64,000 bases of DNA from Prevotella sp. (lineage in GTDB: Bacteria; Bacteroidota; Bacteroidia; Bacteroidales; Bacteroidaceae). The stretch's first letter is position 1. Each line of letters begins with the position of its first letter. Below, in pieces: positions 893-61,078 of this stretch. The notes under the pieces are model-generated. The model did not search any database and was not told where the DNA came from. It worked only from the letters and a program-made list of their open reading frames with translations. The stretch lies in NCBI GenBank assembly GCA_017645645.1, contig JAGCOB010000011.1, positions 1-64,000 on the forward strand, read 5' to 3'. Made by a program: the position numbers and the translations under genes.

Positions 893-1642
893 TTAATTAT
901 TTAATTTTGAATCTTTCTTGCTGTTTATTACTAATTTCTCTAAGAATCGTATCTGGTCGGCAAAGTATGCGTTCTTCTCGGGGAAGCTGCTGCTAAGCCG
1001 CTGTGTAATGTCAAGTGCCTTTTGATAGCGTCCTTGTTTGATATAGATACGTGCCAGGGTCTCGGTGAAGAATTCCTCTTCTGCCGGATCTTCCTCAATG
1101 ACAGGAGCGACTTGCTGTCTCTCTTCTTCCTGAATATCGTTCAAAAGGATTCGTCCTTGTTCTTTCTCAAGGAAGTTATCGATGAGGTCTTGTCCTTGCA
1201 TCTGCGGTGTGTCCTCAGAGAAGGTGTTGTCTTCGCTTTCCAACAAGTATGCGACATAGTCGACGGTGGCATCCTTTGGAGTAGGGCGACGTTTCTTCTT
1301 CTCTTCTGTTTCAACAGGGATGGAATCAAGAAAGGTGTCGATGAGTGCCATCGTACGATTACCATCTTGGCTCTTGGCTGTTGGCTGTTGGCTATTGGCT
1401 GTTGGCTTGAGCTGATAGTGGGCAGCCTCTACGAGATTGAAAAGACTACGGCGGTCAGTGATAAAGACTGCAGAACGGCGCAATTCCTCGTCAAATGAGG
1501 GGTCGTGCATCAGGTAGAGATTCTGGAGCATCAGTAGGCGCACTGTCTGGAAATAGGGATGGAGCGCCAATGTGGAGCGCAACTCATATAATGTGTCGCG
1601 GTCCATTCGTTCAGGATGATTGATCAGCTCTGTTATCTCCAT
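893..1642 (-). CDS. TPR-containing protein of unknown function
   Basis: A 249-residue protein without signal peptide. The N-terminal half contains the stretch LRSTLALHPYFQTVRLLML. One tetratricopeptide-like helix pair is visible near the C terminus (about residues 190-235, ARIYIKQGRYQKALDI). I start it at ATG 1642: an upstream in-frame ATG at 1693 would overlap the preceding gene by 38 bases. Residues 79-92 (Asn, Ser, Gln, Pro, Thr, Ala, Lys) are encoded by a six-unit heptamer repeat, so they are probably an inserted loop. Lying between the lptE-like gene and secG suggests an envelope-related role, but nothing shows it directly. Confidence 0.8.
   Translation of the reverse strand: MEITELINHPERMDRDTLYELRSTLALHPYFQTVRLLMLQNLYLMHDPSFDEELRRSAVFITDRRSLFNLVEAAHYQLKPTANSQQPTAKSQDGNRTMALIDTFLDSIPVETEEKKKRRPTPKDATVDYVAYLLESEDNTFSEDTPQMQGQDLIDNFLEKEQGRILLNDIQEEERQQVAPVIEEDPAEEEFFTETLARIYIKQGRYQKALDITQRLSSSFPEKNAYFADQIRFLEKLVINSKKDSKLNN
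1366..1407. repeat. Heptamer tandem repeat TTGGCTn, six units, in coding DNA
   Basis: Six consecutive 7-bp units: CTTGGCT, CTTGGCT, GTTGGCT, GTTGGCT, ATTGGCT, GTTGGCT. The 42 bp add 14 codons in frame to the TPR protein. The same unit, in one orientation or the other, recurs at 8179-8211 and 27325-27352 inside two other genes. Confidence 0.9.
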
Positions 1643-1655
1643 ATCTCTTATCTTC

Positions 1656-2174
1656 TTACCAGTTCGCCACTGTAGCATTAAATATCTGATCACAGAGGTC
1701 TTTGACCATCTGTCCCACGAGTTCCTCCTGTACGGAGTTTAATGACTGAGTGGTTTCATATACGGATGTCGCCGTAAACTGCCGCTCGAAGTCCTCGTTG
1801 TGGTTGACATTGTTGGTGAAGCGTACGTTGACGGTCATGGACAACTCGGTTTGTGCCGAATAGCCTTCCGCAGATACCGACTTGTTACGCTGCTGGTATT
1901 GTGTAATCTCGCCTTCAATCTTCAGGTCACCATTGCGTCGTACTTGTTCGAGGCGTGTGTGACTGGCAAACTGGTCTTTCAACTGGTTATTGAACATCGG
2001 ACCCATAGGTCCCCAGACATAACTGGAGCGGATGGGGAAGTCGTTAATCTGGATGGTCTTCGTCTTGGAATAGTCAATGCTGGCTCCGTTGAACTTATAG
2101 CTCACGGAGCAGGCAGTCAAGACGAGTACCATGACTGTCAACAACACTTTTATGCCTTTATTTGTCCAATCCAT
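1656..2174 (-). CDS. LptE-like LPS-assembly lipoprotein
   Basis: A 172-residue lipoprotein: a basic start, a hydrophobic helix, and lipobox LTAC with the lipidated Cys at residue 22. The body contains YKFNGASIDYSKTKTI, matching the Bacteroidales LptE-like family (known families; in E. coli LptE plugs the LptD barrel in LPS export). The role is inferred from family and context. The start overlaps the end of the upstream AAA+ gene by 17 bases, so the two are translationally linked. No lptD is in the window. Confidence 0.8.
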   Translation of the reverse strand: MDWTNKGIKVLLTVMVLVLTACSVSYKFNGASIDYSKTKTIQINDFPIRSSYVWGPMGPMFNNQLKDQFASHTRLEQVRRNGDLKIEGEITQYQQRNKSVSAEGYSAQTELSMTVNVRFTNNVNHNEDFERQFTATSVYETTQSLNSVQEELVGQMVKDLCDQIFNATVANW

Positions 2175-3375
2175 ATTGTTTCAATCTTCTATAGAGTGTC
2201 CGATCGCTGATACCTAATTCCTGAGCCGCCTTCTTTCTATTGCCGCCATTACGGTCAAGAGCCTTCTCAAGAGCCTGTCGGCTCCATGCGTCGAGATTCA
2301 GATTCTCAGGTTCTTTGACAGGTTCCACATATTCCTCGGCAACAGCATCCTCAAGGGGGGAGGAAATGGGTTGGATGGGCTGGATGGGTGACAGCTGGGT
2401 CGTGGGGATGGCAGCTGCGGGTGTTGTCTGCACGTCCTCGATCTGTTTCTTCAGGTTACTCATCTCACGACGCATGTCATTGACATTGCTGCGCAATTCG
2501 AAGAGAATCTTATAGAGTATCTCACGCTCATTTTCAAAAGAGTGGTCACCATCACTATGAATGGTAGCAAGCTGGGTCGTCTCCTGATCCTGCGGAATGA
2601 AGCGGGCAAGAATCTCAGGCGTAATCTGTCGCTCTGTGGAGAGGATAGATATCTGCTCCGTGATATTCTTCAACTGGCGCACATTGCCAGGCCACTTGTA
2701 ACGCATGAGCATCTGCTTAGCCTCCTCCGTCAGTACAATCTTGTCCATGTGGTATTTCTCTGCCATCTGCATGGCGAAGAGACGGAACAACAGTACGATG
2801 TCCTCACCACGGTCACGAAGAGGCGGAATCTGAATGGGAATAGAATTCAGACGGTAATAAAGGTCCTCACGGAAGCGTCCCTCACTGATAGCCTGACGGA
2901 TATTGACATTCGTCGCAGCCACAATGCGTACATCCGTCTTACGTACCTCTGTGGCTCCTACAGGGATGTACTCGCCTGTTTCCAACACACGCAACAGTCG
3001 TGCTTGTGTGGCAAGAGGCAGTTCACCCACCTCGTCAAGGAACAGTGTTCCCTTGTTGGCGACTCCGAAATAGCCGGGAGAGTCATTGATGGCTCCTGTA
3101 AAAGAGCCCTTTACGTGTCCGAACAACTCACTGTCGATGGTACCTTCAGGGATAGAACCGCAGTTGATGGCGAAATACTTCTCTCGTTTACGGGGAGAAT
3201 TGTCATGGATGACACGAGGAATGATTTCCTTACCGACACCACTTTCTCCTACAATGAGCACACTCAAATCCGTCGGCGCCACCTGTAAGGCGACGTCTAA
3301 CGCATGGTTCAACCCCTCGCAGTTACCTACGATGTTGTACCGCTGCTTGATGCTCTGTAGCTCCGAACTCTTCAT
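2158..3375 (-). CDS. Sigma-54-interacting AAA+ transcriptional regulator
   Basis: 405 residues without an N-terminal receiver or sensor domain. The AAA+ core starts almost at once: Walker A GESGVGKE (43-50), GSFTGA (90-95, the loop that contacts sigma-54, usually GAFTGA), Walker B TLFLDEVGE, and arginine-finger region FREDLYYRLN. A linker rich in Pro, Gln and Thr (about 275-345) leads to a Fis-type helix-turn-helix at 370-405 (NRKKAAQELGISDRTLYRRL). A -7 box TACCTTTG lies at 3384-3391. Without a sensor domain its activity may be set by its level or a partner protein. Targets are unknown. Confidence 0.93.
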   Translation of the reverse strand: MKSSELQSIKQRYNIVGNCEGLNHALDVALQVAPTDLSVLIVGESGVGKEIIPRVIHDNSPRKREKYFAINCGSIPEGTIDSELFGHVKGSFTGAINDSPGYFGVANKGTLFLDEVGELPLATQARLLRVLETGEYIPVGATEVRKTDVRIVAATNVNIRQAISEGRFREDLYYRLNSIPIQIPPLRDRGEDIVLLFRLFAMQMAEKYHMDKIVLTEEAKQMLMRYKWPGNVRQLKNITEQISILSTERQITPEILARFIPQDQETTQLATIHSDGDHSFENEREILYKILFELRSNVNDMRREMSNLKKQIEDVQTTPAAAIPTTQLSPIQPIQPISSPLEDAVAEEYVEPVKEPENLNLDAWSRQALEKALDRNGGNRKKAAQELGISDRTLYRRLKQYGLDK

Positions 3376-3430
3376 TCAGCCTGCAAAGGTACGAAGAAAA
3401 ACTGACATAATGGCATACTTTGGCAGAAAA

Positions 3431-5755: not shown

Positions 5756-8700
5756 ATGAGACAAGAAATAGACTGCTTCCTTGCCTGTCAGTCAGTGGCT
5801 GAGATTTCGACTACTATTGCCCAGTTGCGAAGGAGCATTGCCGTCAGACATATCTTCCTGTTGACCAGTGAAGCATTGTCCGATATCCCCCAAGACTGTA
5901 CGGTAGTAATGGTAGACCGCATCCAGAGTAGTGACTTCGTGATGCGTGTGGCAGAACATGTAGTGGCTCCCTATGTGTTGCTGAGTATGAAATCCACACC
6001 GATCACCATTGGTGAGACTGCTTTGGAACGTATGCTGTGGGCAGCAGAAGATGCCAAGGCTGCGATGGTATATAGTGACCGTTGGCAGATGGAGCAGGGG
6101 AGCAGAAAGGCACATCCCGTCATCGACTATCAGGAAGGTTCATTGCGTGACGACTTCGACTTTGGAAGTCTGTTGTTGATACGTACCTCTTTGTTGCATA
6201 AGTATGCTACGACTGATCGGGAGCGTGACTACCAATGGGCTGGCTTCTATGATTTTCGTTTGTTCCTGAGTAGGGAAGGAACATTGTTCCATCTCAATGA
6301 ATATCTGTATACAGAAGAAGAAACCGACCTGCGTGCCTCTGGTGAGAAGCAGTTTGACTATGTGAATCCTGCCAATCGGGAAGTACAAATTGAGATGGAG
6401 CAGGCGTGTACGGCTCATCTCCGTCAGATAGAAGCATTGGTGGACACCACCCGGTATCAGGATGTGGATTTTGGAGAACAGGAGTATGAGGTGGAGGCAT
6501 CTGTTGTGATTCCTGTCTTCAACCGTGCGAAGACCATCAAGGATGCCGTGGAGAGTGCCCTCTCTCAGAAGGCGAACTTCAAGTATAATGTCATCGTGGT
6601 GGATAATCACTCCACGGACGGCACCGGAAAAATCCTGTCTCAACTTTCAACTCTTAACTCTCAACTTGTCGTTTTGGTACCAGAACGACGCGACCTTGGC
6701 ATTGGAGGCTGTTGGAACGAGGCGGTTAACAGTCCCTATTGCGGACGTTTTGCCGTACAATTGGACTCCGATGACCTCTATTCGTCGCCCAAGACATTGC
6801 AGACCATCGTGGATGCCTTCTACAAACAAAAGGCTGCCATGATCGTAGGCTCTTACAGGATGTGTGACTTTGACTTGAATACCTTGCCGCCAGGACTCAT
6901 CGCCCATCAGGAATGGACGGACGAGAACGGTCCTAACAATGCCTTGCGCATCAATGGCCTGGGTGCTCCTCGTGCCTTCTTCACGCCTGTCTTGCGTAGT
7001 ATCGGTTTCCCGAACACCTCTTATGGCGAGGATTATGCCTTAGGTTTGATTTTCTCACGTCGTTTCCGTATTGGCAGAATCTTTACTGAGTTGTATCTGT
7101 GTCGTCGATGGGGTGGCAATTCTGATGCGGCACTGTCTGTGGAGAAAATCAATGCCAATAATCTCTATAAGGATCGTCTGCGCACGTTGGAGGTTAAGGC
7201 ACGTCAACAGATGAATCAACAAAAAGCCAAGCCCCTCTCGCCGTTGATGCGTTTCTTTGACCGTCAGTTAAAGACATGGGAGGAGGTTCGCCAGCGTTAT
7301 CGTGAGTTGTCGAATGTAGAGACACGCGAATTAGTAGGAGAGGGGATGCCCTTGACAGTACAGTGGAATCCTGCCCGTATCCGTTCGACTGGAGCAAAGA
7401 TTGATGCCCGTTCACTGGCGGAGCGTCCGTGTTTCCTTTGTGCGGCAAATCGTCCGAAGGAACAGATACACCGTGTGATAGACAAGGAGTATGAATTGTT
7501 GGTTAATCCGTTCCCTATCCTGCCCATCCATTTCACACTGCCTACCCTGAAGCATCAACCACAGGCCATCCTTCCAATGTACGGGGAGATGCTTCGGTTA
7601 TTAGAGAAGGACACAGAACTCACGATTCTATATAATGGTCCCAAGTGTGGTGCCTCTGCACCGGACCATGCCCATCTGCAGGTGGTCAGTACAGGTATTC
7701 TGCCATTACAGAAATATTGGCAGCGACTGAGTCGTAATTTGGTAGAGATTGTGCGGAAAGAGGAGGAAAACGGTATCTGGTATGTTGCCGACTATCCTGT
7801 TGCAGCTTTCTTGGTTCGTAGTAACTCACTGGAGGAAAGTGAAGCGCTTTTCAAGCGTCTCTATGTTTGTCTTCCACTGCGTGAGGATGAGACAGAACCC
7901 ATGATGAATATCATCGCCTGGCGACAAGGAGAGACGATGTTGAGTGTGGTACTGCCGAGAAGGAAGCATCGTCCTGACTGTTATACCAAGGAAGGCAAGG
8001 CACAATATGTCATCAGTCCTGGGGCTGTGGACATGGGTGGACTCCTCATCACCCCCCGGGAAGAGGACTTCCGCAAGATCACCCCTGAGGTCGCCTTGGG
8101 CATCTTACAGGAAGTGTCACTTACACCAGAGCAGATTGAAGAGGTCAAGGCTGTTGTCCGTCATTGGACATCTGACAAAGACCAAAAGCCAAAAGTCAAG
8201 AGCCAAGAGCCTGATGTCACTGTCGGTATTGTCAGTGGACAGAAAATCCAGTTTACGCTTAATGCACCGTATATGGCAAAGGGTGAACTGATAGAAGGCG
8301 AACAGGTGGTGGAGTTTTCGGAAGGTGGTATCCTCTGGCGCGGTATGCAGTATCGTGAGTTGACCTTTACCCCACAATCGTCTTCCGCCTCCTTCTCGTT
8401 ACACGATGTGACCATTGGTGTGAATTTCCATTGGGAGCGTAAGGAGACACAGGTATTTCTCGGTACGTTACGCCTGGTGGTAGAGGCAGATAAAATTACC
8501 GCCATCAACCAATTGCCCGTCGAACAGTATCTGGCGAGTGTCATCAGCAGTGAGATGAAAGCGACGGCAGGACTGGAGCTGTTGAAGGCACATGCCGTTA
8601 TCTCCCGTTCATGGCTCCTTGCCCAGATCAAGCGGAGAGAGGAGAGTGGAGAGCGGAGAGACGGTTTCTTCTCCTTCATCAAGAAAGACGATGAGATCAT

Positions 8701-13713: not shown

Positions 13714-14277
13714 ATGAGAAGACTGCTATTAGTTCTTACCTCTTACCTCTTACCTCTTACCTCCCTGCAGGCTCAGCCTGCCGGTGTGGTCCTTGATACG
13801 CTGCATATCCAGCATATCGACGGAGAGGGGAAGACACAGGTAGGTGTCCTTGTCTGTAACAAGACGATATCAAAGGACTTGCAGGAGATCTTCGCAGAAC
13901 TCTACAAGGCGAAATATCCTATCGAGCGCATGCGTCCCATCTCCGAATATGGCAATGATGACGAGACCTCGATGCGCGCCAACAACACGTCGTGTTACTG
14001 TTATCGTGTCGTGGAGGGTAGTACGAAACTGTCGAACCATGCGCGTGGACTCGCCATCGACATCAATCCGCTGTATAATCCCTGTGTCCGCAGGAAGAAA
14101 GACGGAACGCTGCTCATCCAGCCTGCCACGGGTAAACCCTACGTCAACCGCTGTAAGACGTTCAAGTATAAGATCACGAAGAACGACCTCTGCTATCGCT
14201 TGTTTATCCAGCATGGCTTCAAATGGGGCGGCAACTGGCGGACGGTAAAGGACTACCAGCACTTTGAGAAGCCTTAA
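13714..14277 (+). CDS. Exported M15-family peptidase
   Basis: 187 residues with signal peptide. The zinc-site motifs of the M15 family are present: SNHARGLAIDI (about 107-117; His and Asp ligands) and the C-terminal QHFE with the third ligand. M15 enzymes cleave peptide bonds in peptidoglycan stems or cross-bridges. The spacing resembles the M15C endolysin-like group. Its signal peptide is partly encoded by four perfect copies of TCTTACC, giving the hydrophobic stretch LTSYLLPLTSLQAQ. Its likely place of action is the periplasm. Confidence 0.87.
   Translation: MRRLLLVLTSYLLPLTSLQAQPAGVVLDTLHIQHIDGEGKTQVGVLVCNKTISKDLQEIFAELYKAKYPIERMRPISEYGNDDETSMRANNTSCYCYRVVEGSTKLSNHARGLAIDINPLYNPCVRRKKDGTLLIQPATGKPYVNRCKTFKYKITKNDLCYRLFIQHGFKWGGNWRTVKDYQHFEKP
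13734..13761. repeat. Perfect heptamer repeat TCTTACC x4 in a signal peptide
   Basis: Four identical 7-bp units encode most of the hydrophobic core of the M15 peptidase signal peptide (about residues 8-16). Confidence 0.95.
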
Positions 14278-14307: not shown

Positions 14308-15855
14308 ATGAAAAGAATAGTATGGATTTCTGTGTTGGCGTATGTGATGCTTTGCCATGTAGGGTATACGTACAGCCAAAATCAGAGACAGCGTAACATC
14401 GTCATCCTTTATGAGAATGACGCACACTGTGCGATGGACGGCTATGCCAAGCTGGCTGGACTGCGTGACGCCATTGCCGACACTGCTGATGTCTGTCTGG
14501 TGTCAAATGGTGACTATGTCCAGGGACAGACGGTGGGCGCCATCTCGAAAGGACAGTATGTGGTGGATGTGATGAAGGCTCTCAGCTATGATGCCGTCAC
14601 ACTGGGTAACCATGAGTTTGACTACGGCATGGAGCGTATGTTCGAACTGCTGCGTCAGGTGCCTGCTCCTATCGTGTGCTGCAACCTCTATGATGTGCGG
14701 TCGGGTAGGATGGTGTATGCGCCTTTCGTCATCAAACGGCTGGGCAACAAGAAGATTGCCTTTGTGGGTGTCGTCACACCGACCTCTATGGAGGATGAGG
14801 CGTATGCGTTCAAGGATGAGCGTGACAGTCTCATCTACGACTTGCAACCTGAGGATATCTCCGTCTTGGTACAACGTGCCGTTGATGAGGCGAGAAGGGC
14901 TGGTGCCGACTATGTGATCCTGGACTCTCATCTGGGTGAGAATGAGAATGCCCGTCATTCCGACTCCCATACGGTAGTGGCGAATACCACGGGTATCGAT
15001 ATCGTGCTGGATGGTCATTCCCATGCCGTCATCACTGCTGATACTGTTCTGAACAAGGAAGGAAAACCCATCATCGTGACACAGACGGGTACGAAGTTCG
15101 CCAATGTCGGTAAGTTGCTCATCACCCCGGATGGCAGGATGACGACTTCCCTCATCCCCATTGCGAGTGTGAAGGAGAAGAACGCCTATGTCGCCCATCT
15201 GGTGGACAGCATCAACACCATGCTTCATGCGCAGACGAGTCGTCTGATCTGCCATAGTGAGGTACCTCTGCGTATTACGGATGACGAGGGGCGTGAGGCT
15301 GTCCGTATGGGGGAGACGAATGGTGGCGATATCGTGACGGATGCTTTCCGTCTGGTGACGGGCTCTGACATCTCCGTCCTCAACAGCGGTAGTATCCGCA
15401 ATGAGGTGAACGCTGGTGACCTGACCTATGGCGACCTCCTCTCGATGTTGCCTTACGATAACTATATCGTGGTGGCTGAGGTGAAGGGCAGTACTATCGT
15501 TGCCATGCTGAATAAGTTGATGGCTTTCCTGCCCAAGCCGGACGGTCAGTTCCCACAGGTCTCTGGCATGAAGTTCGTCATCCATGAGAAAGAGCATCGT
15601 GTGAGCGATGTACAGGTCCTCAACAGCTATACACAGCATTACGAGCCTATTAACCTCGACCGTATCTATACTGTTGCCACGACGAAGTATTGCGTGACGG
15701 ACGGTGGTCTTTACAATGCCTTTAAAGGTTGTAAGATCAAATGGGAGACGAAACGTACTTATAACGATATCTTCATCGAGTATGTCACCAAGAACCTCAA
15801 CGGACATATCGGACAGGAATATGCCCAGCCTCAGGGACGAATGAAGAAAATGTAA
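14308..15855 (+). CDS. Exported 5'-nucleotidase / UshA-family phosphoesterase
   Basis: 515 residues: signal peptide (about 1-24), metallophosphatase domain (ILYENDAHCA, VSNGDYVQG, TLGNHEFDYG, DGHSHA) with the two-metal ligands, then a C-terminal 5'-nucleotidase substrate-binding domain (GETNGGDIVTDAF, LNSGSIRNEV). The family releases phosphate from nucleotides or related esters in the periplasm. The first motif is DAHC rather than the frequent DxHG, which is seen in relatives. It sits just before an exported LOG-family protein, suggesting a shared nucleotide-breakdown role. Confidence 0.9.
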   Translation: MKRIVWISVLAYVMLCHVGYTYSQNQRQRNIVILYENDAHCAMDGYAKLAGLRDAIADTADVCLVSNGDYVQGQTVGAISKGQYVVDVMKALSYDAVTLGNHEFDYGMERMFELLRQVPAPIVCCNLYDVRSGRMVYAPFVIKRLGNKKIAFVGVVTPTSMEDEAYAFKDERDSLIYDLQPEDISVLVQRAVDEARRAGADYVILDSHLGENENARHSDSHTVVANTTGIDIVLDGHSHAVITADTVLNKEGKPIIVTQTGTKFANVGKLLITPDGRMTTSLIPIASVKEKNAYVAHLVDSINTMLHAQTSRLICHSEVPLRITDDEGREAVRMGETNGGDIVTDAFRLVTGSDISVLNSGSIRNEVNAGDLTYGDLLSMLPYDNYIVVAEVKGSTIVAMLNKLMAFLPKPDGQFPQVSGMKFVIHEKEHRVSDVQVLNSYTQHYEPINLDRIYTVATTKYCVTDGGLYNAFKGCKIKWETKRTYNDIFIEYVTKNLNGHIGQEYAQPQGRMKKM

Positions 15856-15883
15856 AAATGAGAAAATGTAATAATGTAATAAT
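15852..15883. repeat. Octamer repeat GTAATAAT type, four units
   Basis: GTAAAAAT, GAGAAAAT, GTAATAAT, GTAATAAT (4 x 8 bp), starting at the stop codon of the nucleotidase gene and ending 15 bases before the next ATG. Confidence 0.8.
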
Positions 15884-15898
15884 TTAATTAATATAGCT

Positions 15899-18710: not shown

Positions 18711-18745
18711 TTAACCCTTAACCTTTAACCCTTAACCCTGAACCA
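18711..18745. repeat. Heptamer repeat TTAACCC, intergenic
   Basis: TTAACCC, TTAACCT, TTAACCC, TTAACCC, TGAACCA: four close units plus one degenerate. Confidence 0.85.
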
Positions 18746-18761: not shown

Positions 18762-18829
18762 CTCAGTAAATTCACTGAATTTGGTGAGTAAATTCAGTGA
18801 ATTTACTGAGTAAACACACTGAATTTACT
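18762..18829. repeat. 21-bp perfect inverted repeat plus a third half-copy
   Basis: CTCAGTAAATTCACTGAATTT (21 bp) is given in full only by position: 18762-18782 pairs perfectly with 18790-18810 across a 7-base loop. A further ACTGAATTTACT follows at 18818-18829. Each arm is itself nearly palindromic around TAAATTCACTGAATTTA. A long cruciform or RNA hairpin is possible. No T run follows, so it is not a standard terminator. Confidence 0.85.
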
Positions 18830-23447: not shown

Positions 23448-25727
23448 TTATCTAATGAACAGTAACTCACGGTATTTGGGGAGAGTCCAGAGACCGTCCT
23501 CTACGATGAGTTCGAGTTTGTCTGCCTCATAGCGGATAGCACCCATGTGCGGCTCTACCGTGTCATGATAGGCGATGGCACGCTGGTGGATGTTCTCGAT
23601 GCGGTTAGCCACCTTTCTTGCCTCTGTCAACTCCTCGACAAACTGCTCAATCTTCTCCGTACGCTCTGCAATCTCCTCGATGAGTTTCATGTTACGGATA
23701 GAGAGACGTTCAGCCTTCTCCACAGAGAAGACATCCTTCATGCCCTGTACGTTCTTGATGAGCTGACTCTGATAGTGCGTGGCGACAGGGATGATATGGT
23801 TCATGGCGAGGTCGCCAAGGACACGAGCCTCTATCTGCACGGTCTTGACATACATCTCCCATTTCACCTCATTACGAGCCTCCAGCTCCTTGTGGTTCAT
23901 CACCTTCGTGCTCTCGAACATCCTCACACTCGACTCGTCGAGGTAACGTTCGAAGATGACAGGACATGACTTCTCTACGTCGAGACCGCGCCGGGCAGCC
24001 TCTTTTACCCATTCCTCAGAATAACCATTGCCGTCGAAGCGGATAGGTTTACAGGTCTTGATATCTTCTTTCAGCACCTCGAGGATGGCGTGAATCTTGG
24101 CGGTATTCTCGGAGTTATCGGAATTCTCGGAGTACTCCGAGATTTTTTTATCCACTCGCTCCTTGAAGGAGTTGAGCGCCTCTGCCATTGCGGCATTCAG
24201 GGCAATCATTGCCGATGCACAATTGGCGGTAGAGCCTGGTGCACGGAACTCGAATCGGTTACCCGTGAAGGCGAAGGGTGACGTACGGTTACGGTCGGTA
24301 TTATCCACAATCAGATCGGGAATCTGTGGGATGTCAATCTCCTCTATTAGTTTAGAGTTTAGAGTTGATAGTGTAGAGTTTGCTGCCGCCATAGAGTTAG
24401 GGAGTCCGGTAGGAAATTCTACACTCTCAGTTTTAAACTCTACATTTTCAAGTTTGTCGAGGAGTTCAGTCAACTGTGTTCCCAAGAAAGAGGAGATGAT
24501 GGCAGGAGGAGCCTCATTACCGCCCAAGCGGTGGGCATTCGTAGCACTCATGATAGAGGCTTTCAACAGTCCGTTATGACGATAGACAGCCATCAGCGTC
24601 TCTACGATGAACGTCACAAAGCGCAGGTTCTCCTCAGGAGTCTTACCTGGAGCATGCAACAGTACGCCATTGTCTGCCGACAGGCTCCAGTTATTGTGCT
24701 TACCGCTGCCGTTGATACCGTCAAAGGGTTTCTCATGCAGCAACACACGGAAACCGTGATTGCGCGCCACCTTCTTCATCAGTGACATCAACAGCATGTT
24801 GTGGTCGACTGCCAGGTTACACTCCTCAAAGACGGGAGCCAACTCAAACTGATTCGGAGCCACCTCGTTATGACGTGTCTTGACAGGGATGGCGAGTTCG
24901 AGTGCCTGTATCTCCAAGTCCTTCATAAACGCCTGAACGCGGTCGGGGATGGTACCGAAATAGTGGTCGTCCATCTGCTGGTTTTTCGCACTCTCGTGTC
25001 CCATCAGTGTACGTCCCGTCATCACCAAGTCAGGACGGGCAGAATAGAGTCCCTCATCCACGAGGAAGTACTCCTGTTCCCATCCGAGGTTTACCTGTAC
25101 TTTCGTGACATCGTCATAGAAATACTGGCAGACATCCTTGGCAGCCTTGCCTACGGCATGCAGGGCACGGAGTAGGGGAGCTTTGTAGTCGAGGGCTTCA
25201 CCCGTATAGGCAATGAAGATGGTGGGGATACACAGCGTGTCGTCGATGATGAACACAGGCGATGTCGGGTCCCATGCCGAATAGCCGCGCGCCTCGAAGG
25301 TATTGCGGATACCGCCATTCGGGAACGACGAGGCGTCAGGCTCCTGTTGGACGAGCAGTTTACCGCTGAACGTCTCTATCATACCGCCCTTGCCGTCATG
25401 TTCCACGAAGGCATCGTGCTTCTCTGCCGTACCCTCTGTCAACGGTTGGAACCAGTGAGTATAGTGGGTCACACCCATCTCCATCGCCCATTTCTTCATA
25501 CCGTCAGCCACTGCGTCGGCAATGCTGCGGTCGTCCAGACGGGCACCGTTGTCCATCACGTCAATCATCTTCTCGTAGATGTCGGAGGGCAGGTATCTGA
25601 ACATCTTCTGTTTGTTGAAGACATACTTGCCGAAATACTCCGACGGTCTCTCTTCAGGTACGGGAACATCGAGGGCTCTCTTCTTGAAAGCCTCTTCCAC
25701 GACCTGAAATCTCAAATTGTTTGCCAT
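23448..25727 (-). CDS. glnN: Glutamine synthetase type III
   Basis: Makes glutamine from glutamate, ammonia and ATP. This is the large GSIII class typical of Bacteroidetes (about 730 residues; here 759). Markers: RYSAWDP-like GYSAWDPTSP, GWEQEYFLVD, RHNEVAPNQFELAP, NGSGKHNNWSL, NRTSPFAFTGNRFEFRAPGS. The excess length comes from tandem-repeat insertions: about residues 425-436 and 450-459 (heptamers) and 529-541 (9-mers encoding Ser-Glu-x triplets). It lies 24 bases after aguB in the aguA-aguB-glnN operon, which links agmatine breakdown (releasing ammonia) to ammonia assimilation. Confidence 0.93.
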   Translation of the reverse strand: MANNLRFQVVEEAFKKRALDVPVPEERPSEYFGKYVFNKQKMFRYLPSDIYEKMIDVMDNGARLDDRSIADAVADGMKKWAMEMGVTHYTHWFQPLTEGTAEKHDAFVEHDGKGGMIETFSGKLLVQQEPDASSFPNGGIRNTFEARGYSAWDPTSPVFIIDDTLCIPTIFIAYTGEALDYKAPLLRALHAVGKAAKDVCQYFYDDVTKVQVNLGWEQEYFLVDEGLYSARPDLVMTGRTLMGHESAKNQQMDDHYFGTIPDRVQAFMKDLEIQALELAIPVKTRHNEVAPNQFELAPVFEECNLAVDHNMLLMSLMKKVARNHGFRVLLHEKPFDGINGSGKHNNWSLSADNGVLLHAPGKTPEENLRFVTFIVETLMAVYRHNGLLKASIMSATNAHRLGGNEAPPAIISSFLGTQLTELLDKLENVEFKTESVEFPTGLPNSMAAANSTLSTLNSKLIEEIDIPQIPDLIVDNTDRNRTSPFAFTGNRFEFRAPGSTANCASAMIALNAAMAEALNSFKERVDKKISEYSENSDNSENTAKIHAILEVLKEDIKTCKPIRFDGNGYSEEWVKEAARRGLDVEKSCPVIFERYLDESSVRMFESTKVMNHKELEARNEVKWEMYVKTVQIEARVLGDLAMNHIIPVATHYQSQLIKNVQGMKDVFSVEKAERLSIRNMKLIEEIAERTEKIEQFVEELTEARKVANRIENIHQRAIAYHDTVEPHMGAIRYEADKLELIVEDGLWTLPKYRELLFIR
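24106..24141. repeat. 9-mer repeat TTCTCGGAG type, four units, in glnN
   Basis: TTCTCGGAG, TTATCGGAA, TTCTCGGAG, TACTCCGAG. On the coding strand it reads SEY SEN SDN SEN. The neighbouring gene aguB carries three units of the same repeat (25945-25971). Confidence 0.92.
24351..24378. repeat. Heptamer repeat TTTAGAG, four units, in glnN
   Basis: TTTAGAG, TTTAGAG, TTGATAG, TGTAGAG. Together with 24419-24453 it adds a Ser/Thr/Asn/Leu-rich loop to the synthetase. Confidence 0.85.
24419..24453. repeat. Degenerate heptamer repeat CTACACT type in glnN
   Basis: CTACACT, CTCAGTT, TTAAACT, CTACATT, TTCAAGT. It is the inverse orientation of the TTTAGAG/TGTAGAG words 40 bases away, so the two arrays could pair imperfectly. 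Confidence 0.65.
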
Positions 25728-27583: not shown

Positions 27584-27588
27584 GGGTG

Positions 27589-27648
27589 CAAAATTACGAA
27601 ATAATTTTCAATTTTCAATTTTCAATTCTCAATTATTTTGTATCTTTG
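27589..27648. promoter_or_regulatory. Divergent promoter region aguA / fetA-like
   Basis: Two -7 boxes face away from each other: TAATTTTG on the minus strand (27589-27596, aguA) and TATCTTTG on the plus strand (27641-27648). The 44 bases between them are almost entirely a heptamer repeat. No canonical TTTG -33 element exists on either side, so the repeat must supply the upstream contacts or there are none. Confidence 0.65.
27603..27630. repeat. Heptamer repeat AATTTTC, four units, between divergent promoters
   Basis: AATTTTC, AATTTTC, AATTTTC, AATTCTC, then AATTATT. Confidence 0.92.
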
Positions 27649-27663
27649 CACCAAAATACGACG

Positions 27664-35234: not shown

Positions 35235-35238
35235 TCGT

Positions 35239-35270
35239 GATAACGTAATAACGATATAACGTAATAATGA
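35239..35270. repeat. Octamer repeat ATAACGTA, four units
   Basis: ATAACGTA, ATAACGAT, ATAACGTA, ATAATGAA (4 x 8 bp) between the nif3-like stop and the next ATG. Confidence 0.88.
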
Positions 35271-35287
35271 AATAATTAAAAAAAACT

Positions 35288-36620: not shown

Positions 36621-36639
36621 GTTTGCAAAGGTAGTAAAT

Positions 36640-36667
36640 AATTGATAATTGACAATTGATAATTGAT
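36640..36667. repeat. Heptamer repeat AATTGAT, four units, between divergent promoters
   Basis: AATTGAT, AATTGAC, AATTGAT, AATTGAT, then AATTATT. TTG words inside it sit 19 bases from the -7 boxes on both sides (36626-36633 minus, 36678-36685 plus), so it may supply the -33 elements for both genes. Confidence 0.92.
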
Positions 36668-36705
36668 AATTATTTCGTATCTTTGCGACCGAAAACCTAA
36701 AAACT

Positions 36706-44524: not shown

Positions 44525-44529
44525 ATTGT

Positions 44530-44577
44530 ATCGTAATACCGTTATATCGTAATACCGTAATACCGTTATACTGTAAT
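44530..44577. repeat. Octamer repeat ACCGTAAT type, six units
   Basis: ATCGTAAT, ACCGTTAT, ATCGTAAT, ACCGTAAT, ACCGTTAT, ACTGTAAT between the aroC start and the slyD-like stop. Related in sequence to the ATAACGTA array at 35239. Confidence 0.9.
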
Positions 44578-44589
44578 ATCGTCCGAATA

Positions 44590-53374: not shown

Positions 53375-54865
53375 ATGATTTTGAGTATCGTTTTATTATT
53401 ATTGATGATGGTGAATTCGTGTAACGGACAGACAAACAATCCTGTGGTGAGACCTGCCACTCAGGCAAACCGCTTCTACACAGGCGATCCCAAGGAATTG
53501 AGTGCTGAAGTTGACAGTTTTCTGGAACTTCATCGTGGCAGGACCATGTATGAGCATGTGGCAGCACTCATCGTACCCCATGCTGGTTATTATTTCTCAG
53601 GAAATGTGGCGGCATCGGCCTATATGACGCTGAATACCGGGAAGACCTATCAGCGGATATTCCTGTTGGGACCGAGTCATCACGAATGGCTCGACGGGGC
53701 ATCCGTGAATACAGAGGCGGACTATTATGCCACGCCCTTGGGGAATGTGAAGGTGGATCATGAGACATGTATCGAACTGACGAAGAAAGACAGCGTGTTC
53801 TCCTATCGCCCAAAGGCGCATGACAGGGAGCATTGTTTGGAGGTGCAGCTGCCGTTCCTGCAAAGATACTTCACTCTACACTCTAAACTCTACACTAAAG
53901 AAGTGCCCCCGATTGTCCCCATCATCATCTCGACTAACGACTTCCAGAAACTAAGGCGGATGGCAGAGGTGCTGAAAACGTATTTCACTGACGAGAACCT
54001 CTTCATCATCAGCAGTGACTTCTCACACTATCCTTCGTATGACGATGCCTGTGAGGTGGATGCCAAGACGGGCAAGGCGATTGAGACAGGTGATGTTGAA
54101 CAGTTCATTGCCGCCATTGAAGAAAATGCCCGTAGCGGAAAGCTCAACCTGGCAACGAGTGCCTGTGGTGAGTTTCCTATTATTACACTGATGCTGATGC
54201 TCGACGGACAATACGACATCAAACACCTGATGTACCAGAACTCGGGTGATATTGACAACTACAATTCTTCACGTGTAGTAGGCTATCACTCCTTCGCCTT
54301 CTTACGCAAAGAAGCAGGCTTCACCCTTTCCGATGAAGACAAACGCCAACTGAAGGAGATTGCCCTCAACAGCATCAAAGATTCTTTAGATGGCAAGGGA
54401 ATAGCGGCAGCAAACTTTCAACTCTTAACCCTCAACGCTCAACTGCGAAGCAAGTGTGGTGCCTTCGTCTCTCTCCACAAACATGGTCGTCTTCGTGGAT
54501 GTATCGGACATTTCGGAGAGGATGTGCCTCTCTATGAGATAGTGGCAGAGATGGCACGTGCTGCAGCCTTCGAAGACCCACGCTTCATGCCTGTCAGTCG
54601 TGAGGAACTGGAGGATCTCGATATTGAGATTTCCGTACTCACCCCCATGCGTCGCATCCAGAGCCTCGATGAGTTCGAGTTGCATCGACATGGCATCTAC
54701 ATCCGTAAGGGCTATCGCAGCGGTACCTTCCTGCCGCAGGTGGCAGACGAGGTAAACTGGACGAAGGAGGAGTTTGTAGGACATTGTTCGCAGGACAAGG
54801 CAGGACTCGGCTGGGACGGCTGGCGCGATGCGGAACTGTATGTCTATGAAGCAATCGTGTTTTGA
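53375..54865 (+). CDS. Memo-AMMECR1 fusion (AmmeMemoRadiSam B + A) with a lipoprotein signal
   Basis: 496 residues. Residues about 25-310 are a Memo domain (RPATQANRFYTGD, VPHAGYYFSG, GPSHHEW with the conserved His residues, SSDFSHYPSY). Residues about 320-496 are AMMECR1 (GAFVSLHKHGRLRGCIG, FEDPRFMPVS, LPQVADEV). These two plus a radical SAM enzyme form the AmmeMemoRadiSam set, conserved but of unknown reaction. The N terminus is a hydrophobic helix with lipobox VNSC, so export is predicted. Two heptamer repeats are in frame (53874-53894, 54413-54440). The stop overlaps the next start. Confidence 0.9.
   Translation: MILSIVLLLLMMVNSCNGQTNNPVVRPATQANRFYTGDPKELSAEVDSFLELHRGRTMYEHVAALIVPHAGYYFSGNVAASAYMTLNTGKTYQRIFLLGPSHHEWLDGASVNTEADYYATPLGNVKVDHETCIELTKKDSVFSYRPKAHDREHCLEVQLPFLQRYFTLHSKLYTKEVPPIVPIIISTNDFQKLRRMAEVLKTYFTDENLFIISSDFSHYPSYDDACEVDAKTGKAIETGDVEQFIAAIEENARSGKLNLATSACGEFPIITLMLMLDGQYDIKHLMYQNSGDIDNYNSSRVVGYHSFAFLRKEAGFTLSDEDKRQLKEIALNSIKDSLDGKGIAAANFQLLTLNAQLRSKCGAFVSLHKHGRLRGCIGHFGEDVPLYEIVAEMARAAAFEDPRFMPVSREELEDLDIEISVLTPMRRIQSLDEFELHRHGIYIRKGYRSGTFLPQVADEVNWTKEEFVGHCSQDKAGLGWDGWRDAELYVYEAIVF
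53874..53894. repeat. Heptamer repeat CTCTACA, three units, in the Memo domain
   Basis: CTCTACA, CTCTAAA, CTCTACA, then CTAAAGA. It encodes about residues 167-173 in a loop. Confidence 0.85.
54413..54440. repeat. Heptamer repeat AACTCTT type, four units, in the AMMECR1 region
   Basis: AACTTTC, AACTCTT, AACCCTC, AACGCTC. It encodes [11 protein letters not shown] just before the conserved GAFVSLHKHG segment. Confidence 0.85.
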
Positions 54866-56034: not shown

Positions 56035-56066
56035 AAAATTGAAGAATTGAAAGATTCAAAAATTGA
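56035..56066. repeat. Octamer repeat AAAATTGA, four units, before the leader peptide
   Basis: AAAATTGA, AGAATTGA, AAGATTCA, AAAATTGA. It ends 4 bases before the leader-peptide ATG. Confidence 0.85.
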
Positions 56067-56070
56067 AGTA

Positions 56071-56148
56071 ATGAACAAGTTGAACGCTTACTTTTACGGT
56101 TATTATTTTTACTTTGCAGAGACCTGTGAAGCGGAAAGCCGTATGTAA
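56071..56148 (+). CDS. Phe/Tyr-rich leader peptide of the pheA operon
   Basis: A 25-codon frame: MNKLNAYFYGYYFYFAETC then six more residues. It has five Tyr and three Phe codons clustered in codons 7-15, the hallmark of an attenuation leader peptide. Too short for standard ORF calling. Its last codons (56125-56140) are the arm that can pair with the terminator's left strand. A ribosome stalled on Tyr/Phe codons would leave that arm free. Confidence 0.8.
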   Translation: MNKLNAYFYGYYFYFAETCEAESRM

Positions 56149-56225
56149 GAATTAAAGAATTGAAAAATTGAAGAATTAAAATAAGGCTCCGCTTCACAAA
56201 CCAAGTGAAAGCGGAGTTTATTTTT
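56125..56225 (+). promoter_or_regulatory. Transcription attenuator of the aromatic operon
   Basis: Terminator: GCTCCGCTTCAC (56186-56197) with GTGAAAGCGGAG (56205-56216), one bulge, then TTTATTTTT. Antiterminator: TGTGAAGCGGAAAGCC (56125-56140), inside the end of the leader peptide, is complementary to GGCTCCGCTTCACA (56185-56198). The two structures exclude each other. With enough charged tRNA-Phe/Tyr the ribosome would run to the stop at 56146-56148, cover the 5' arm and let the terminator form. With starvation, stalling near codons 7-15 would free it. Mechanism inferred from sequence. Confidence 0.78.
56148..56179. repeat. Octamer repeat AGAATTGA, four units, inside the attenuator loop
   Basis: AGAATTAA, AGAATTGA, AAAATTGA, AGAATTAA. 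It separates the leader-peptide stop from the terminator and would be the loop of the antiterminator. Same words as 56035-56066. Confidence 0.88.
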
Positions 56226-57128: not shown

Positions 57129-58290
57129 ACCAGCAGATAGATTAAGTTTAGTGAGTGAATACTACTTCAGTCGGAAACTGAAGGAGGTGGCACAGATGAA
57201 TGCGGAAGGTAAGGACATCATCAGTCTTGCCATCGGTAGTCCTGACATGCCGCCATCGGAGCAGACCATCAATAAATTATGTGAAGTGGCTCACCAACCT
57301 AATGCACATGGCTATCAGCCCACGATGGGAACACCTGAGTTGCGCGAGGCAATGGCAGGTTTCTATCAGCGTTGGTATGATGTCGATCTGGATGCGAAGA
57401 CAGAAATCCTTCCATTGATTGGTTCGAAGGAGGGTATTCTCCATGTAACGCTGGCTTTCGTCAATCCTGGCGATGCCGTATTGGTACCTAATCCTGGTTA
57501 TCCTACCTATACTTCTTTGTCGAAGATTCTGGGTGCCAACGTCGTTTATTATAACCTGAAGGAGGACAACGGCTGGCAGCCCGACTTCGAGCAGTTGGAG
57601 GACATCATACATCATACATCTAACATCAGACTTCTTTGGACCAACTATCCCAATATGCCGACGGGTGGGAGAGCCCAACGCAAGACCTACGAGCGTCTGG
57701 TGCAGTTTGCCAAGGACGACGGCATCGTCGTGGTCAACGATAACCCCTACAGTTTCATCCTCAACGAAGAGCACCTCAGTATTCTTCAGGTGCCAGGTGC
57801 GAAAGACTGCTGTATCGAGTTCAACTCAATGTCGAAGTCACATAACATGCCTGGTTGGCGTGTGGGTTTGTGTGCTACCAATGCCGAGTTCATCTCATGG
57901 ATCCTGAAGGTACAGTCGAATATCGAGAGCGGTACCTTCCGTGGTATCCAACTGGCTGCCGCTGAGGCTTACAACAATAGCGAGGAGTGGCATCGTGAGT
58001 ATAATATCAATACCTATGCACGTCGTCGTCAATGGGCAGAAAAGATTATGGATGTCTTAGGCTGTACGTACGACAAGAACCAGGTAGGTATGTTCCTCTG
58101 GGGAAAGATACCTGAGCACATTCAGAACGTGGAAGACTTGACGGAAAAGGTATTGCATGAGGCACGTGTCTTCATCACCCCAGGATTTATCTTTGGCTCG
58201 AATGGTGAGCGATATATCCGCATCTCTCTTTGTGCCAAAGAAGAGAAGATACAGCAAGCCCTCGAACGCATCAAGAAAATTGTAAAATAG
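57109..58290 (+). CDS. Class I/II aminotransferase, probably aromatic
   Basis: 393 residues, PLP fold type I: AIGSPDMPPSE, the PLP lysine in NSMSKSHNMPGWRVG, NYPNMPTGG with the Asn/Tyr contacts, and FRGIQLAAAEAY. Family members include LL-diaminopimelate and aspartate/aromatic aminotransferases. Being between pheA and tyrA points to amination of phenylpyruvate and hydroxyphenylpyruvate. Residues about 165-174 (DIIHHTSNIR) come from a four-unit heptamer repeat before the conserved LLWTNYPN. Confidence 0.88.
   Translation: MANRRIEPADRLSLVSEYYFSRKLKEVAQMNAEGKDIISLAIGSPDMPPSEQTINKLCEVAHQPNAHGYQPTMGTPELREAMAGFYQRWYDVDLDAKTEILPLIGSKEGILHVTLAFVNPGDAVLVPNPGYPTYTSLSKILGANVVYYNLKEDNGWQPDFEQLEDIIHHTSNIRLLWTNYPNMPTGGRAQRKTYERLVQFAKDDGIVVVNDNPYSFILNEEHLSILQVPGAKDCCIEFNSMSKSHNMPGWRVGLCATNAEFISWILKVQSNIESGTFRGIQLAAAEAYNNSEEWHREYNINTYARRRQWAEKIMDVLGCTYDKNQVGMFLWGKIPEHIQNVEDLTEKVLHEARVFITPGFIFGSNGERYIRISLCAKEEKIQQALERIKKIVK
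57603..57630. repeat. Heptamer repeat CATCATA, four units, in the aminotransferase gene
   Basis: CATCATA, CATCATA, CATCTAA, CATCAGA. Confidence 0.92.
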
Positions 58291-58308
58291 TGAAATTGTA
58301 AAATTGTA
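58277..58308. repeat. Octamer repeat AAATTGTA, four units
   Basis: AAATTGTA, AAATAGTG, AAATTGTA, AAATTGTA, then AAATATAA, across the aminotransferase stop codon and up to 10 bases before the next ATG. Confidence 0.9.
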
Positions 58309-58318
58309 AAATATAATC

Positions 58319-60330: not shown

Positions 60331-60335
60331 TTTTG

Positions 60336-60367
60336 TTTGGTTTTTCACACAAATTACACTATCTTTG
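60336..60367 (+). promoter_or_regulatory. Promoter of the HD-domain gene
   Basis: TTTG (60336-60339), 20 bases, TATCTTTG (60360-60367), about 20 bases before the ATG. Confidence 0.78.
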
Positions 60368-60387
60368 CCCCAAAATATCAAAAGAAA

Positions 60388-61050
60388 ATGACAAGAAACG
60401 AATTTGAGGCATTGATGGAGAAGTATGCCGACAAGATTGAAGATATCCGGCAGTCGGCACATGAACTGCATCGCAGTGTCAATCAGACGTATGGTGACGA
60501 CTTGCCGTATGGCTATCATTTGGATATGGTGGTAAACGGTATCAGGGATTTCGGACACTTGGTGTGTGCCTGTGAGAATGATGTGCTGCCATTGTTTTTC
60601 GGAGGCTATTATCACGACAGTATCGAGGATGCTCGTCTGACGTATAATGACGTGTTGAAAATAGCTCGAGAGATGTTGACTGAGGAGCAGGCATTGATGG
60701 CAACGGAGATTGCCTATGCGCTCACGAATGACAAAGGACGTACTCGTGCAGAGAGGGCTGGAGAGAAATATTATAAAGGAATCCGCGAGACTCCCTATGC
60801 ACCATTTGTCAAACTCTGTGACCGTTTGGCGAATATCAGTTATAGTTGTTCGGGAATGAATGCCCACAGTCTCCGAATGAAGGAGATCTACAAGGGTGAG
60901 GTTCCTCATTTCCTTGCCTCTATCAATCCGCGTAGCAAAGACCAGCGTTTTTTGGTGCCTCAGGAGGTGGTCTATAAACTGGCAGAGTGTCTGATTGACG
61001 ATCTGGAGCGTGAGGAGCAGAACCAATCGGCATGGTGGCACGAGTACTAG
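60388..61050 (+). CDS. HD-domain phosphohydrolase-like protein
   Basis: 220 residues. HD-superfamily metal site: His in PYGYHLDMVV, the HD pair in GGYYHDSIEDARL, and Asp in KLCDRLANI. The pattern is close to the hydrolase part of RelA/SpoT-type and related nucleotide phosphohydrolases, but no synthetase, TGS or ACT domain is present. A small alarmone or nucleotide hydrolase is possible, not proven. ATG 60388 follows the promoter; the frame start at 60337 is a non-ATG codon inside it. Confidence 0.8.
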   Translation: MTRNEFEALMEKYADKIEDIRQSAHELHRSVNQTYGDDLPYGYHLDMVVNGIRDFGHLVCACENDVLPLFFGGYYHDSIEDARLTYNDVLKIAREMLTEEQALMATEIAYALTNDKGRTRAERAGEKYYKGIRETPYAPFVKLCDRLANISYSCSGMNAHSLRMKEIYKGEVPHFLASINPRSKDQRFLVPQEVVYKLAECLIDDLEREEQNQSAWWHEY

Positions 61051-61078
61051 TTTAAAGTTTATAGTTTATAGTTGAGAG
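61051..61078. repeat. Heptamer repeat TTTATAG, four units
   Basis: TTTAAAG, TTTATAG, TTTATAG, TTGAGAG between the HD gene stop and the next ATG. Confidence 0.92.

What the first reader, a model, noticed from the sequence alone, without database searches (positions are those of the whole stretch)
1366..61078. Window-wide family of four-unit tandem repeats (7, 8 or 9 bp) with a private unit at each locus
Reading base by base I find about twenty arrays with unit length 7 (most), 8 or 9 bp. Most have exactly four units: 28 bp at 6639, 8634, 13734, 24351, 27325, 27603, 36640, 54413, 57603, 61051; 32 bp at 15852, 35239, 56035, 56148, 58277; 36 bp at 24106. A few have three (25945, 53874) or six (1366, 44530). 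Unit words differ between loci but share a style, and units differ from each other by one or two bases. About half are inside genes without breaking them. A fixed count of four with variable unit length is not what simple slippage should give. It recalls the heptanucleotide STRR repeats known from cyanobacteria, but with a different word each time. I know of no described mechanism in Bacteroidales.
Basis: partly seen in the sequence, partly recalled or inferred. Interest (0 to 1): 0.85.

Follow-up and report, generated by a model that had tools for sequence, protein, structure and literature searches.

The report
Short seven-letter DNA arrays in Prevotella
These rumen-type bacteria carry many tiny stutters of a seven-letter DNA word, usually about four copies long, in genes and promoters, and related species can carry a different word at the same spot, which points to a rapid DNA-stuttering process held in check by reading frame and promoter geometry.

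Summary
The arrays are real: all 20 have a TRF row, and 25 period-7-to-9 rows score >=40 against 0.05 in shuffles. The host is a rumen-type Prevotella. Sampled congeners have 7 to 18 period-7 arrays per 100 kb, one sparse congener 0.8, and 20 other genomes of the class 0 in 393 kb. Two claims need correcting. Words are not private: TTGGCTN occurs at 16 places here, AGAGGTN at 62 listed places in a congener. "Four" is a mode: strong in coding sequence (49 of 85) and beside -7 boxes (33 of 41), weaker elsewhere (35 of 102). Three added heptamers (21 bp) keep the reading frame and make two helical turns. At 12 of 22 shared sites some species pair carries unlike arrays. Best explanation: a lineage-restricted, slippage-like duplication with a 7-bp step, filtered by frame and helix phase, with concerted turnover. 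Slippage alone does not explain the shared vocabulary within a genome; copying between loci remains open. Known relatives: heptamer repeats of Xanthomonas, Nostoc and Beggiatoa.

The parts
1365..1407 (+). TTGGCTN array, about 6 units, inside gene 893-1678 (-); in relative G338 the same place holds a 9-bp-period array (read by eye in the alignment)
6638..6666 (+). TCTCAAC x4 inside gene 5756-9418
8182..8211 (+).
8634..8661 (+). GGAGAGN x4 inside gene 5756-9418; present in G338; in G285 and G457 the stretch has equal length but the array is degraded or not recognisable
13734..13763 (+). TCTTACC x4.3, encodes the hydrophobic stretch of a signal-peptide-like N-terminus (ORF 13714-14277, Peptidase_M15_4); G457 and G338 have 8-bp-period arrays of equal total length here
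15847..15888 (+). AAAATGTA-type 8-mer x5 across the end of ORF 14308-15855 and the spacer
18711..18744 (+). TTAACCC x4.9, intergenic; one unit fewer in G285 at 97-99% flank identity
24101..24131 (+). weak 9-mer array inside the type III glutamine synthetase gene
24349..24381 (+). weak AGTTTAG array inside the same gene
25951..25971 (+). GAGTACTCT x2.3 (9-mer) inside a CN_hydrolase gene; near the chance level
27320..27348 (+). GGCTTTT x3 + GGCTGTT inside a PAD_porph-family gene (26621-27583 -); G338 has a single GGCTGTT here (21 bp shorter)
27603..27634 (+). AATTTTC x4.6 between two outward-facing -7 boxes; other words at nearly the same spacing in relatives
27588..27596 (-). -7 box (GCAAAATTA read on +) left of the 27603 array
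27641..27649 (+). -7 box TATCTTTGC right of the 27603 array (44 bp between the boxes)
35236..35280 (+). CGTNATAA 8-mer x5 in the spacer between ORFs ending 35234 and starting 35288
36638..36671 (+). ATAATTG x4.9 between two outward-facing -7 boxes
36625..36633 (-). -7 box (GCAAAGGTA read on +) left of the 36638 array
36678..36686 (+). -7 box TATCTTTGC right of the 36638 array (44 bp between the boxes)
44529..44582 (+). CGTNATAN 8-mer x6.4 between ORFs 43448-44524 (-) and 44590-45177 (-)
53872..53896 (+). CACTCTA x3.6 inside a Memo/AMMECR1 gene; G338, G457 and G285 are 24 bp shorter with no array
54418..54443 (+). weak TCAACCC array (TRF score 31, near the chance level)
56035..56067 (+). AAAATTGA 8-mer x4
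56147..56180 (+). AAGAATTA 8-mer x4
57602..57628 (+). ACATCAT x3.9 inside an aminotransferase gene
58276..58312 (+). AAAATTGT 8-mer x4.6 across the end of ORF 57109-58290 and the spacer
61048..61073 (+). AGTTTAN x3.7 at the end of ORF 60337-61050 and in the spacer before 61086; G285 is 12 bp shorter

Best explanation
A lineage-restricted tandem-duplication process, most simply replication slippage, keeps writing short arrays with an intrinsic step of 7 bp (less often 8 or 9) into Prevotella genomes. What survives is filtered by selection. Inside genes only multiples of three are kept, so three added heptamers (21 bp, giving about 4 units) is the smallest tolerated gain. Upstream of -7 promoter boxes, spacing is kept on the DNA helix, and 21 bp is two turns, so four units dominate again. 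Where neither rule holds, copy number is broader. Units of an array change together (concerted turnover) and sites stay tolerant, so orthologous sites end up with unlike words or periods. Shown here: the period spectrum, the context-dependent copy number, frame-preserving length changes, promoter spacing, and unlike arrays at the same site. Inferred: that slippage is the engine, and that selection causes the four-unit excess. Not explained by this model: why each genome has favourite words at many loci.
For: Period spectrum: arrays of period 7, 8 and 9 number 48, 13, 14 in own and 71, 5, 14 in G033, while periods 5, 6, 10, 11, 12, 13 number 0, 1, 1, 2, 1, 0 and 0, 2, 1, 5, 3, 4; periods 6 and 12 are frame-neutral and still rare, so the 7-bp step looks mechanistic. 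Four whole units by context: coding 49 of 85, within 24 bp of a -7 box 33 of 41, gene edge 16 of 53, other intergenic 19 of 49; Fisher p = 5e-6 for the first two against the last two. Non-zero length differences between orthologues (flank identities summing to >=150) are multiples of 3 in 385 of 390 pairs for coding arrays and 37 of 123 for noncoding ones; with one best orthologue per array and a difference of at least 9, 28 of 28 against 10 of 24. Arrays between divergent -7 boxes keep a 42-44 bp spacing in 17 of 22. One-unit step at 97-99% flank identity (18711). One-unit versus four-unit pair (27320 against G338). Change of all units together (L056 AATTATG against L060 AATTATC at the same promoter). 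Array-free orthologues hold a unit-like word (7 or more matches) in 17 of 46 sites against about 4 expected; the mean was reached in 0 of 5000 permutations.
Against: Slippage does not predict that one word recurs at dozens of loci with unrelated flanks, that one column of the word is free while the other six are conserved, or that 16 of 23 AGAGGTN arrays end in AGAGA[AT]. In 29 of 46 array-free orthologues the best unit match is 6 or less, the range of most chance pairs, and some 'array-free' orthologues still hold weak repeats; divergence limits that test. 'Other intergenic' arrays still peak at four (19 of 49), and a first, coarser split showed 35 of 64 intergenic arrays at four. Some changes replace local sequence as well as adding to it (53872; L334 against L027 at 98/95% flank identity). 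The gene finder was home-made, so coding and edge calls carry some error.
Confidence: 0.5

Rival explanations
1. Dispersed cassettes: ready-made 31-33 bp arrays are copied from locus to locus, for example by template switching or gene conversion using the 4-5 bp boxes as microhomology, so each genome spreads its own words and sites exchange one array for another.
For: (GGCTNTT)3: 16 places in the own genome against 1-4 places in each of the 8 of 59 sampled congeners that have any. 17 of 26 TTGGCTN arrays have five boxes (two mismatches allowed per box) in unrelated flanks. G033: 105 matches of AGAGGTNAGAGGTNAGAG, 62 places among the 100 listed, reversed control 0. Of 23 AGAGGTN arrays looked at, 12 have four units plus a terminal AGAGA[AT] half unit and 16 end AGAGA[AT]. 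Word similarity within own and G033 0.150 against 0.103 with genome labels shuffled (maximum 0.119 of 1000). 12 of 22 shared sites carry unlike arrays in some species pair.
Against: No target-site duplication, longer shared flank or enzyme was found, but these were not searched systematically; the array at 27320 matches the single local copy in G338; reverse-transcriptase genes do not track array density.
Confidence: 0.3
2. Functional sites: the arrays are bound by a protein that reads contiguous 7-bp repeats, as the plasmid pSM19035 ParB does, or act as promoter elements, and selection keeps at least four units.
For: 60 of the 88 measured distances from a noncoding array to an outward -7 box are 4-9 bp, and 27 of 251 noncoding arrays have such a box on both sides; one free base with a conserved core; pSM19035 parS needs four or more contiguous repeats (PMC9499535, abstract and section titles).
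Against: Many words per genome, both strands, inside unrelated genes, replaced by unlike words or periods at the same place in relatives; 42-44 bp is also the commonest spacing of divergent -7 boxes without arrays (36 of 107).
Confidence: 0.1
3. Chance, assembly artefact or conserved protein repeats.
Against: Shuffles give almost none; other lags serve as in-sequence controls; arrays occur at 8.1 per 100 kb in 160 kb of the 99%-complete genome G285, whose contig equals a Prevotella sp. tf2-5 contig in length; orthologues lack or replace them.
Confidence: 0.02

Closest known systems
G-rich heptamer repeats of Xanthomonas and Nostoc (GGGAATC, GGGGA(C/T)T), PMC4692102 (abstract, introduction, homology section and discussion read)
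   Same: 7-bp unit spread over the genome, preference for four units, length and sequence variation between relatives, unknown function
   Different: That study follows one G-rich word type, links four units to G-quadruplexes, and finds it under-represented in coding regions and between divergent genes; here many words, most without G-runs, 85 of 228 period-7 arrays in coding sequence, and arrays between divergent promoters
TAACTGA direct repeats of marine Beggiatoaceae, some Cyanobacteria and five Bacteroidetes, PMC4679880 (abstract and one section read)
   Same: [quoted passage not shown] indels in 7-nt steps between two Cyanothece strains
   Different: One word, mostly upstream of start codons there; here many words, coding as well, and placed next to -7 boxes
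STRR heptamers of cyanobacteria (name recalled; three tandem heptanucleotides of Calothrix are mentioned in PMC4692102)
   Same: 7-bp tandem repeats with a few favoured words per genome
   Different: Here most arrays have four or five units and favoured words differ between congeners; no direct comparison was made
Repeat array parS of plasmid pSM19035 bound by a ribbon-helix-helix ParB, PMC9499535 (abstract and section list read)
   Same: contiguous heptad repeats with a functional threshold of four
   Different: A plasmid centromere; here many words per genome, and no binding protein was looked for
Phase-variable contingency repeats (recalled)
   Same: tandem repeats that change length by slippage
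   Different: Between species, coding length differences here keep the frame in 28 of 28 arrays; strains of one species could not be compared

Membership tests
heptameric simple sequence repeats (general kind) | 7-bp unit repeated head to tail far above chance, genome-wide | tested here: met
heptameric simple sequence repeats (general kind) | copy number changes in whole units between close relatives | tested here: met
   18711: one unit, flanks 97-99%; 27320: three units, flanks 89-92%; few cases
Xanthomonas/Nostoc G4 heptamers | four units preferred | tested here: met
   context-dependent
Xanthomonas/Nostoc G4 heptamers | G-run in every unit, allowing G-quadruplexes | tested here: not met
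   array words such as AATTTTC, TCTTACC, ATAATTG; a few words do hold GG or GGG
Beggiatoa-type TAACTGA repeats | the word TAACTGA | tested here: not met
   not among the arrays printed for 464 kb of the own genome; the rest of the genome was not searched for it
pSM19035-type heptad parS | one array word bound by a ribbon-helix-helix ParB | tested here: not met
   many words per genome; the binding protein was not searched for
phase-variable contingency loci | length changes shift the reading frame or promoter spacing | tested here: not met
   between species only: coding 28 of 28 in frame; spacing 42-44 bp in 17 of 22 divergent promoter arrays
transposon-like element (REP, MITE) | defined ends, empty sites with target duplication or terminal inverted repeats | tested here: inconclusive
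   defined 3' end in one family; no inverted repeat or target duplication noticed in the alignments, not searched systematically
reverse-transcriptase-templated arrays (telomerase or DGR type) | reverse transcriptase genes in array-rich genomes and not in array-poor ones | tested here: not met
   PF00078: none in array-rich own (64% complete), G033 (83%), G338 (75%); present in array-rich G285 and G158 and also in array-poor G016, G128, G090; incompleteness is a caveat
mismatch-repair-deficient slippage | MutS missing in array-rich genomes | tested here: not met
   PF01624 in 11 of 13 genomes: in 10 of 10 that are >=90% complete and <=5% contaminated, array-rich G285 and G457 among them, and in G033; none found in own (64%) and G338 (75%)

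The most novel reading that the evidence does not exclude
Prevotella genomes host self-spreading heptad cassettes: 31-33 bp blocks of four to five boxes of a genome-specific word with one free base and a defined end are copied between loci and swapped for one another at standing sites (protein loops, signal peptides, promoter gaps), forming an unrecognised class of tiny dispersed element without its own enzyme.
Probability: 0.25. Interest if true: 0.85.

Novelty: new variant of a known kind. Interest (0 to 1): 0.62.

Why it matters
Over-representation of heptamer repeats in bacteria has been noted, and a polymerase-footprint cause suggested (both as reported in PMC4692102). The Prevotella arrays offer a place to test it: sampled species of one genus range from 0.8 to 17.8 period-7 arrays per 100 kb. 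The four-unit preference, earlier tied to G-quadruplexes in Xanthomonas and Nostoc, appears here with words that lack G-runs, and its context dependence suggests frame and helix phase instead. The arrays also rewrite protein loops, some signal peptides and promoter gaps, so they are a visible source of small, frame-safe novelty.

Tried and rejected
Frame alone as the cause of 'four': set aside at first because intergenic arrays also peak at four (35 of 64); splitting the noncoding arrays showed that much of that peak is beside -7 boxes. Reverse transcriptase genes and loss of MutS as causes: neither tracks array density. Same-word clustering within 3 kb: none in own (0 of 15 pairs), weak in G033 (16 of 62, permutation P 0.03). 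Shared long flanks around G033 arrays: the hits are largely overlapping flanks of neighbouring arrays or shared array words and promoter boxes; I did not sort them all. Over-representation of the box hexamers: TTGGCT in own not above a Markov expectation (60.6 against 62.4 per 100 kb); AGAGGT in G033 59.5 against 43.3, arrays included. Hydrophobic (signal-peptide) use as the general role: only 6 of 95 coding arrays start within 35 residues of the N-terminus, and mean hydropathy is -0.69 against -0.34 for the host proteins. C-free or G-free strand: enriched in period-7 units (37 of 70 coding, 41 of 56 intergenic; controls 0.21 and 0.39), but no mechanism follows from it. My first count of unlike arrays (16 of 25 sites) compared canonical words on one strand only and counted duplicate genomes apart; the corrected count is 12 of 22. 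Rfam: only a tRNA in the window at the gathering threshold. Literature on heptamer arrays: searches listed no paper on heptamer arrays in Prevotella (listings seen; two of the listed papers read in part); two searches asked about divergent promoters and heptad-binding proteins. The library holds only open-licence papers, so this is no proof of absence. Rows dropped: arrays within 250 bp or 200 bp of a locus end; periods other than 7, 8, 9, 14, and other than 7 and 8; orthologue pairs outside the length, flank and identity limits in the scripts; also arrays on loci L110 and later, which had no gene calls.


Full report
Observation. TRF finds a period-7, 8 or 9 row at or beside all 20 coordinates given. 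In the window 25 such rows score >=40 against a mean of 0.05 in 20 dinucleotide shuffles. With at least three units at >=85% identity there are 16 period-7 and 5 period-8 arrays and none in 20 shuffles. 11 of the 20 lie inside predicted genes. Two of the weakest, 54413 (score 31) and 25945 (score 35), are near the level that shuffles reach. TRF rows of period 10-13 also exceed shuffles, though fewer (9 against 0.25 at score >=40).

Where it occurs. The best glutamine-synthetase relatives are Prevotella and Prevotellaceae records, many from ruminants by their titles. In 464 kb of this genome I count 48 period-7, 13 period-8 and 14 period-9 arrays at lag score >=12, none of these periods in one shuffle. 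In 80 named loci (1,507 kb) there are 109, 26 and 29, against 1, 0 and 0 in one shuffle. Period-7 density per 100 kb: own 10.3, congener G033 17.8, congener G016 0.8, two genomes of the same family but another genus 0 and 0 (120 kb each), one genome of another family in the order 6.3 (7 arrays in 111 kb), and 20 genomes of the class 0 in 393 kb. G285, 99% complete, has 8.1 in 160 kb; its contig of 164,449 bases equals the length of the Prevotella sp. tf2-5 contig NZ_FOWK01000010.1, so I take it for that isolate (inference). Periods 5, 6 and 10-13 are rare in dense genomes (0 to 5 each in own and G033, against 48 and 71 of period 7). Periods 6 and 12 would be frame-neutral, so I read the 7-bp step as a property of the process and not of selection for frame.

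Copy number. Seeded on perfect runs in 2,482 kb (own, G033, the 80 loci and G158), 76 of 161 period-7 arrays have four whole units (17 have three, 29 have five) and lengths peak at 31-33 bp. The peak depends on context (own, G033 and the 80 loci, score >=12): coding 49 of 85, within 24 bp of a -7 box 33 of 41, gene edge 16 of 53, other intergenic 19 of 49 (Fisher p = 5e-6). Period-8 arrays are broad and rarely coding (3 of 44), and 44 of 57 period-9 arrays have two or three units. A gain of three heptamers is 21 bp: seven codons and two helical turns. Non-zero length differences of coding arrays from their orthologues are multiples of three in 385 of 390 pairs, against 37 of 123 for noncoding ones; with one best orthologue per array and a difference of at least 9, 28 of 28 against 10 of 24. 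I read the four-unit mode as mainly a filter effect. Weak points: a residual peak in other intergenic arrays and a home-made gene finder.

Promoter arrays. Among 251 noncoding arrays (gene edges included), 60 have an outward -7 box (TANNTTTGC) within 80 bp and 27 have one on each side; 60 of the 88 distances are 4-9 bp, and boxes pointing into the array occur in 4 of 251. Random intergenic windows have an outward box in 475 of 3000, so the enrichment is modest while the spacing is tight. Window arrays 27603 and 36638 each lie between two such boxes 44 bp apart. Array-bearing divergent pairs are 42-44 bp apart in 17 of 22, which is also the commonest spacing without arrays (36 of 107). At the 27603 site relatives carry AATTTTC, AGTTTAG, TCTTAAT, TATGAAT or AATTATC arrays at nearly the same spacing.

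Same site, unlike array. Of 22 sites with arrays in at least two species, 12 have a species pair with unlike words (distance >=3 of 7 on either strand) or periods, and 6 of these differ in period. Examples: at 13734 this genome has a 7-mer array and G457 and G338 have 8-mers of the same total length, in the signal-peptide-like start of a Peptidase_M15_4 protein; at 1365 this genome has TTGGCTN and G338 a 9-mer array (read by eye). A PAD_porph-family gene (window 26621-27583) takes different arrays at two loops at least across species, judged from shared flanking peptides. At 27320 G338 has one GGCTGTT where this genome has four units, and G457 has one GACCTTT, the word that L030 carries between five and six times. 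Across 46 sites with an array-free orthologue, 17 hold a unit-like word against about 4 expected, so local origin holds for part of them and is undecided for the rest.

Vocabulary. Words recur within a genome. (GGCTNTT)3 matches 26 times at 16 places here; 8 of 59 sampled congeners have any, at 1-4 places each. The related pattern TTGGCTNTTGGCTNTTGGC occurs at 8-9 places each in G338, G457 and G280 and not in G285 or G352. G033 has 105 matches of AGAGGTNAGAGGTNAGAG, 62 places among the 100 listed, with 0 for the reversed control. In the own family the fifth base is free (41% non-consensus) while the others vary in 1-8% (15 arrays). Of 23 AGAGGTN arrays looked at (30 fetched loci, the held G033 stretches and L045), 12 have four units plus a terminal AGAGA[AT] half unit and 16 end AGAGA[AT], in unrelated flanks (the unit caller allowed two mismatches). 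Within-genome word similarity in own and G033 exceeds every one of 1000 label shuffles. Slippage alone does not explain this. Copying between loci, or a sequence preference of the duplication, would.

Mechanism and status. The engine is inferred: slippage with a 7-bp step, an idea that PMC4692102 (discussion) reports from earlier work. Neither MutS loss nor reverse-transcriptase genes track array density; reverse transcriptases occur in array-rich G285 and G158 as well as in array-poor G016, G128 and G090, and none was found in own, G033 or G338. The finding is a new variant of the known heptamer-repeat kind, with three features I saw in no listing of my searches on heptamers: a four-unit mode tied to frame and promoter spacing, many genome-specific words, and unlike arrays at the same site in related species.

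Noticed in passing
2.37 Mb of Prevotella sequence, including window 27588-27649 and 36625-36686: Divergent -7 boxes (GCAAANNTA ... TANNTTTGC) are spaced at about 12, 22-24, 33, 42-44, 52-53, 62-64, 73-76 bp; 102 distinct array-free pairs of at least 10 bp, best of nine periods tried 10.25-10.4 bp, Rayleigh R 0.78, p about 1e-27; 129 divergent against 16 convergent pairs. Bidirectional promoters seem phased on the DNA helix.
   Followed up: partly
window 13734-13763; own genome C7:32554 (L004): Some arrays encode the hydrophobic core of signal peptides; the TTGGCTN word read in sense gives W-L-L-A-V-G-C, next to a lipobox-like LANSC in L004 (translated by eye; window case).
   Followed up: partly
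L011:3724, L009:10740, L015:9264, L028:14313, L010:4031, L020:15581, L020:13287: Several period-9 arrays share near-palindromic cores (CTCNGAG, CTATAG), unlike the period-7 words.
   Followed up: no
window 35236-35280, 44529-44582; L028:17687, L020:1640: Several period-8 arrays share a CGTNATAN style; the two in the window sit in spacers between ORFs.
   Followed up: no
window 18765-18829: Three tandem copies of a 22-bp, nearly palindromic unit just after the TTAACCC array.
   Followed up: no
window 36638 against L309 (G338): G338 is 74 bp longer beside an identical array, with extra -7-box-like stretches, as if part of the promoter had been duplicated.
   Followed up: no
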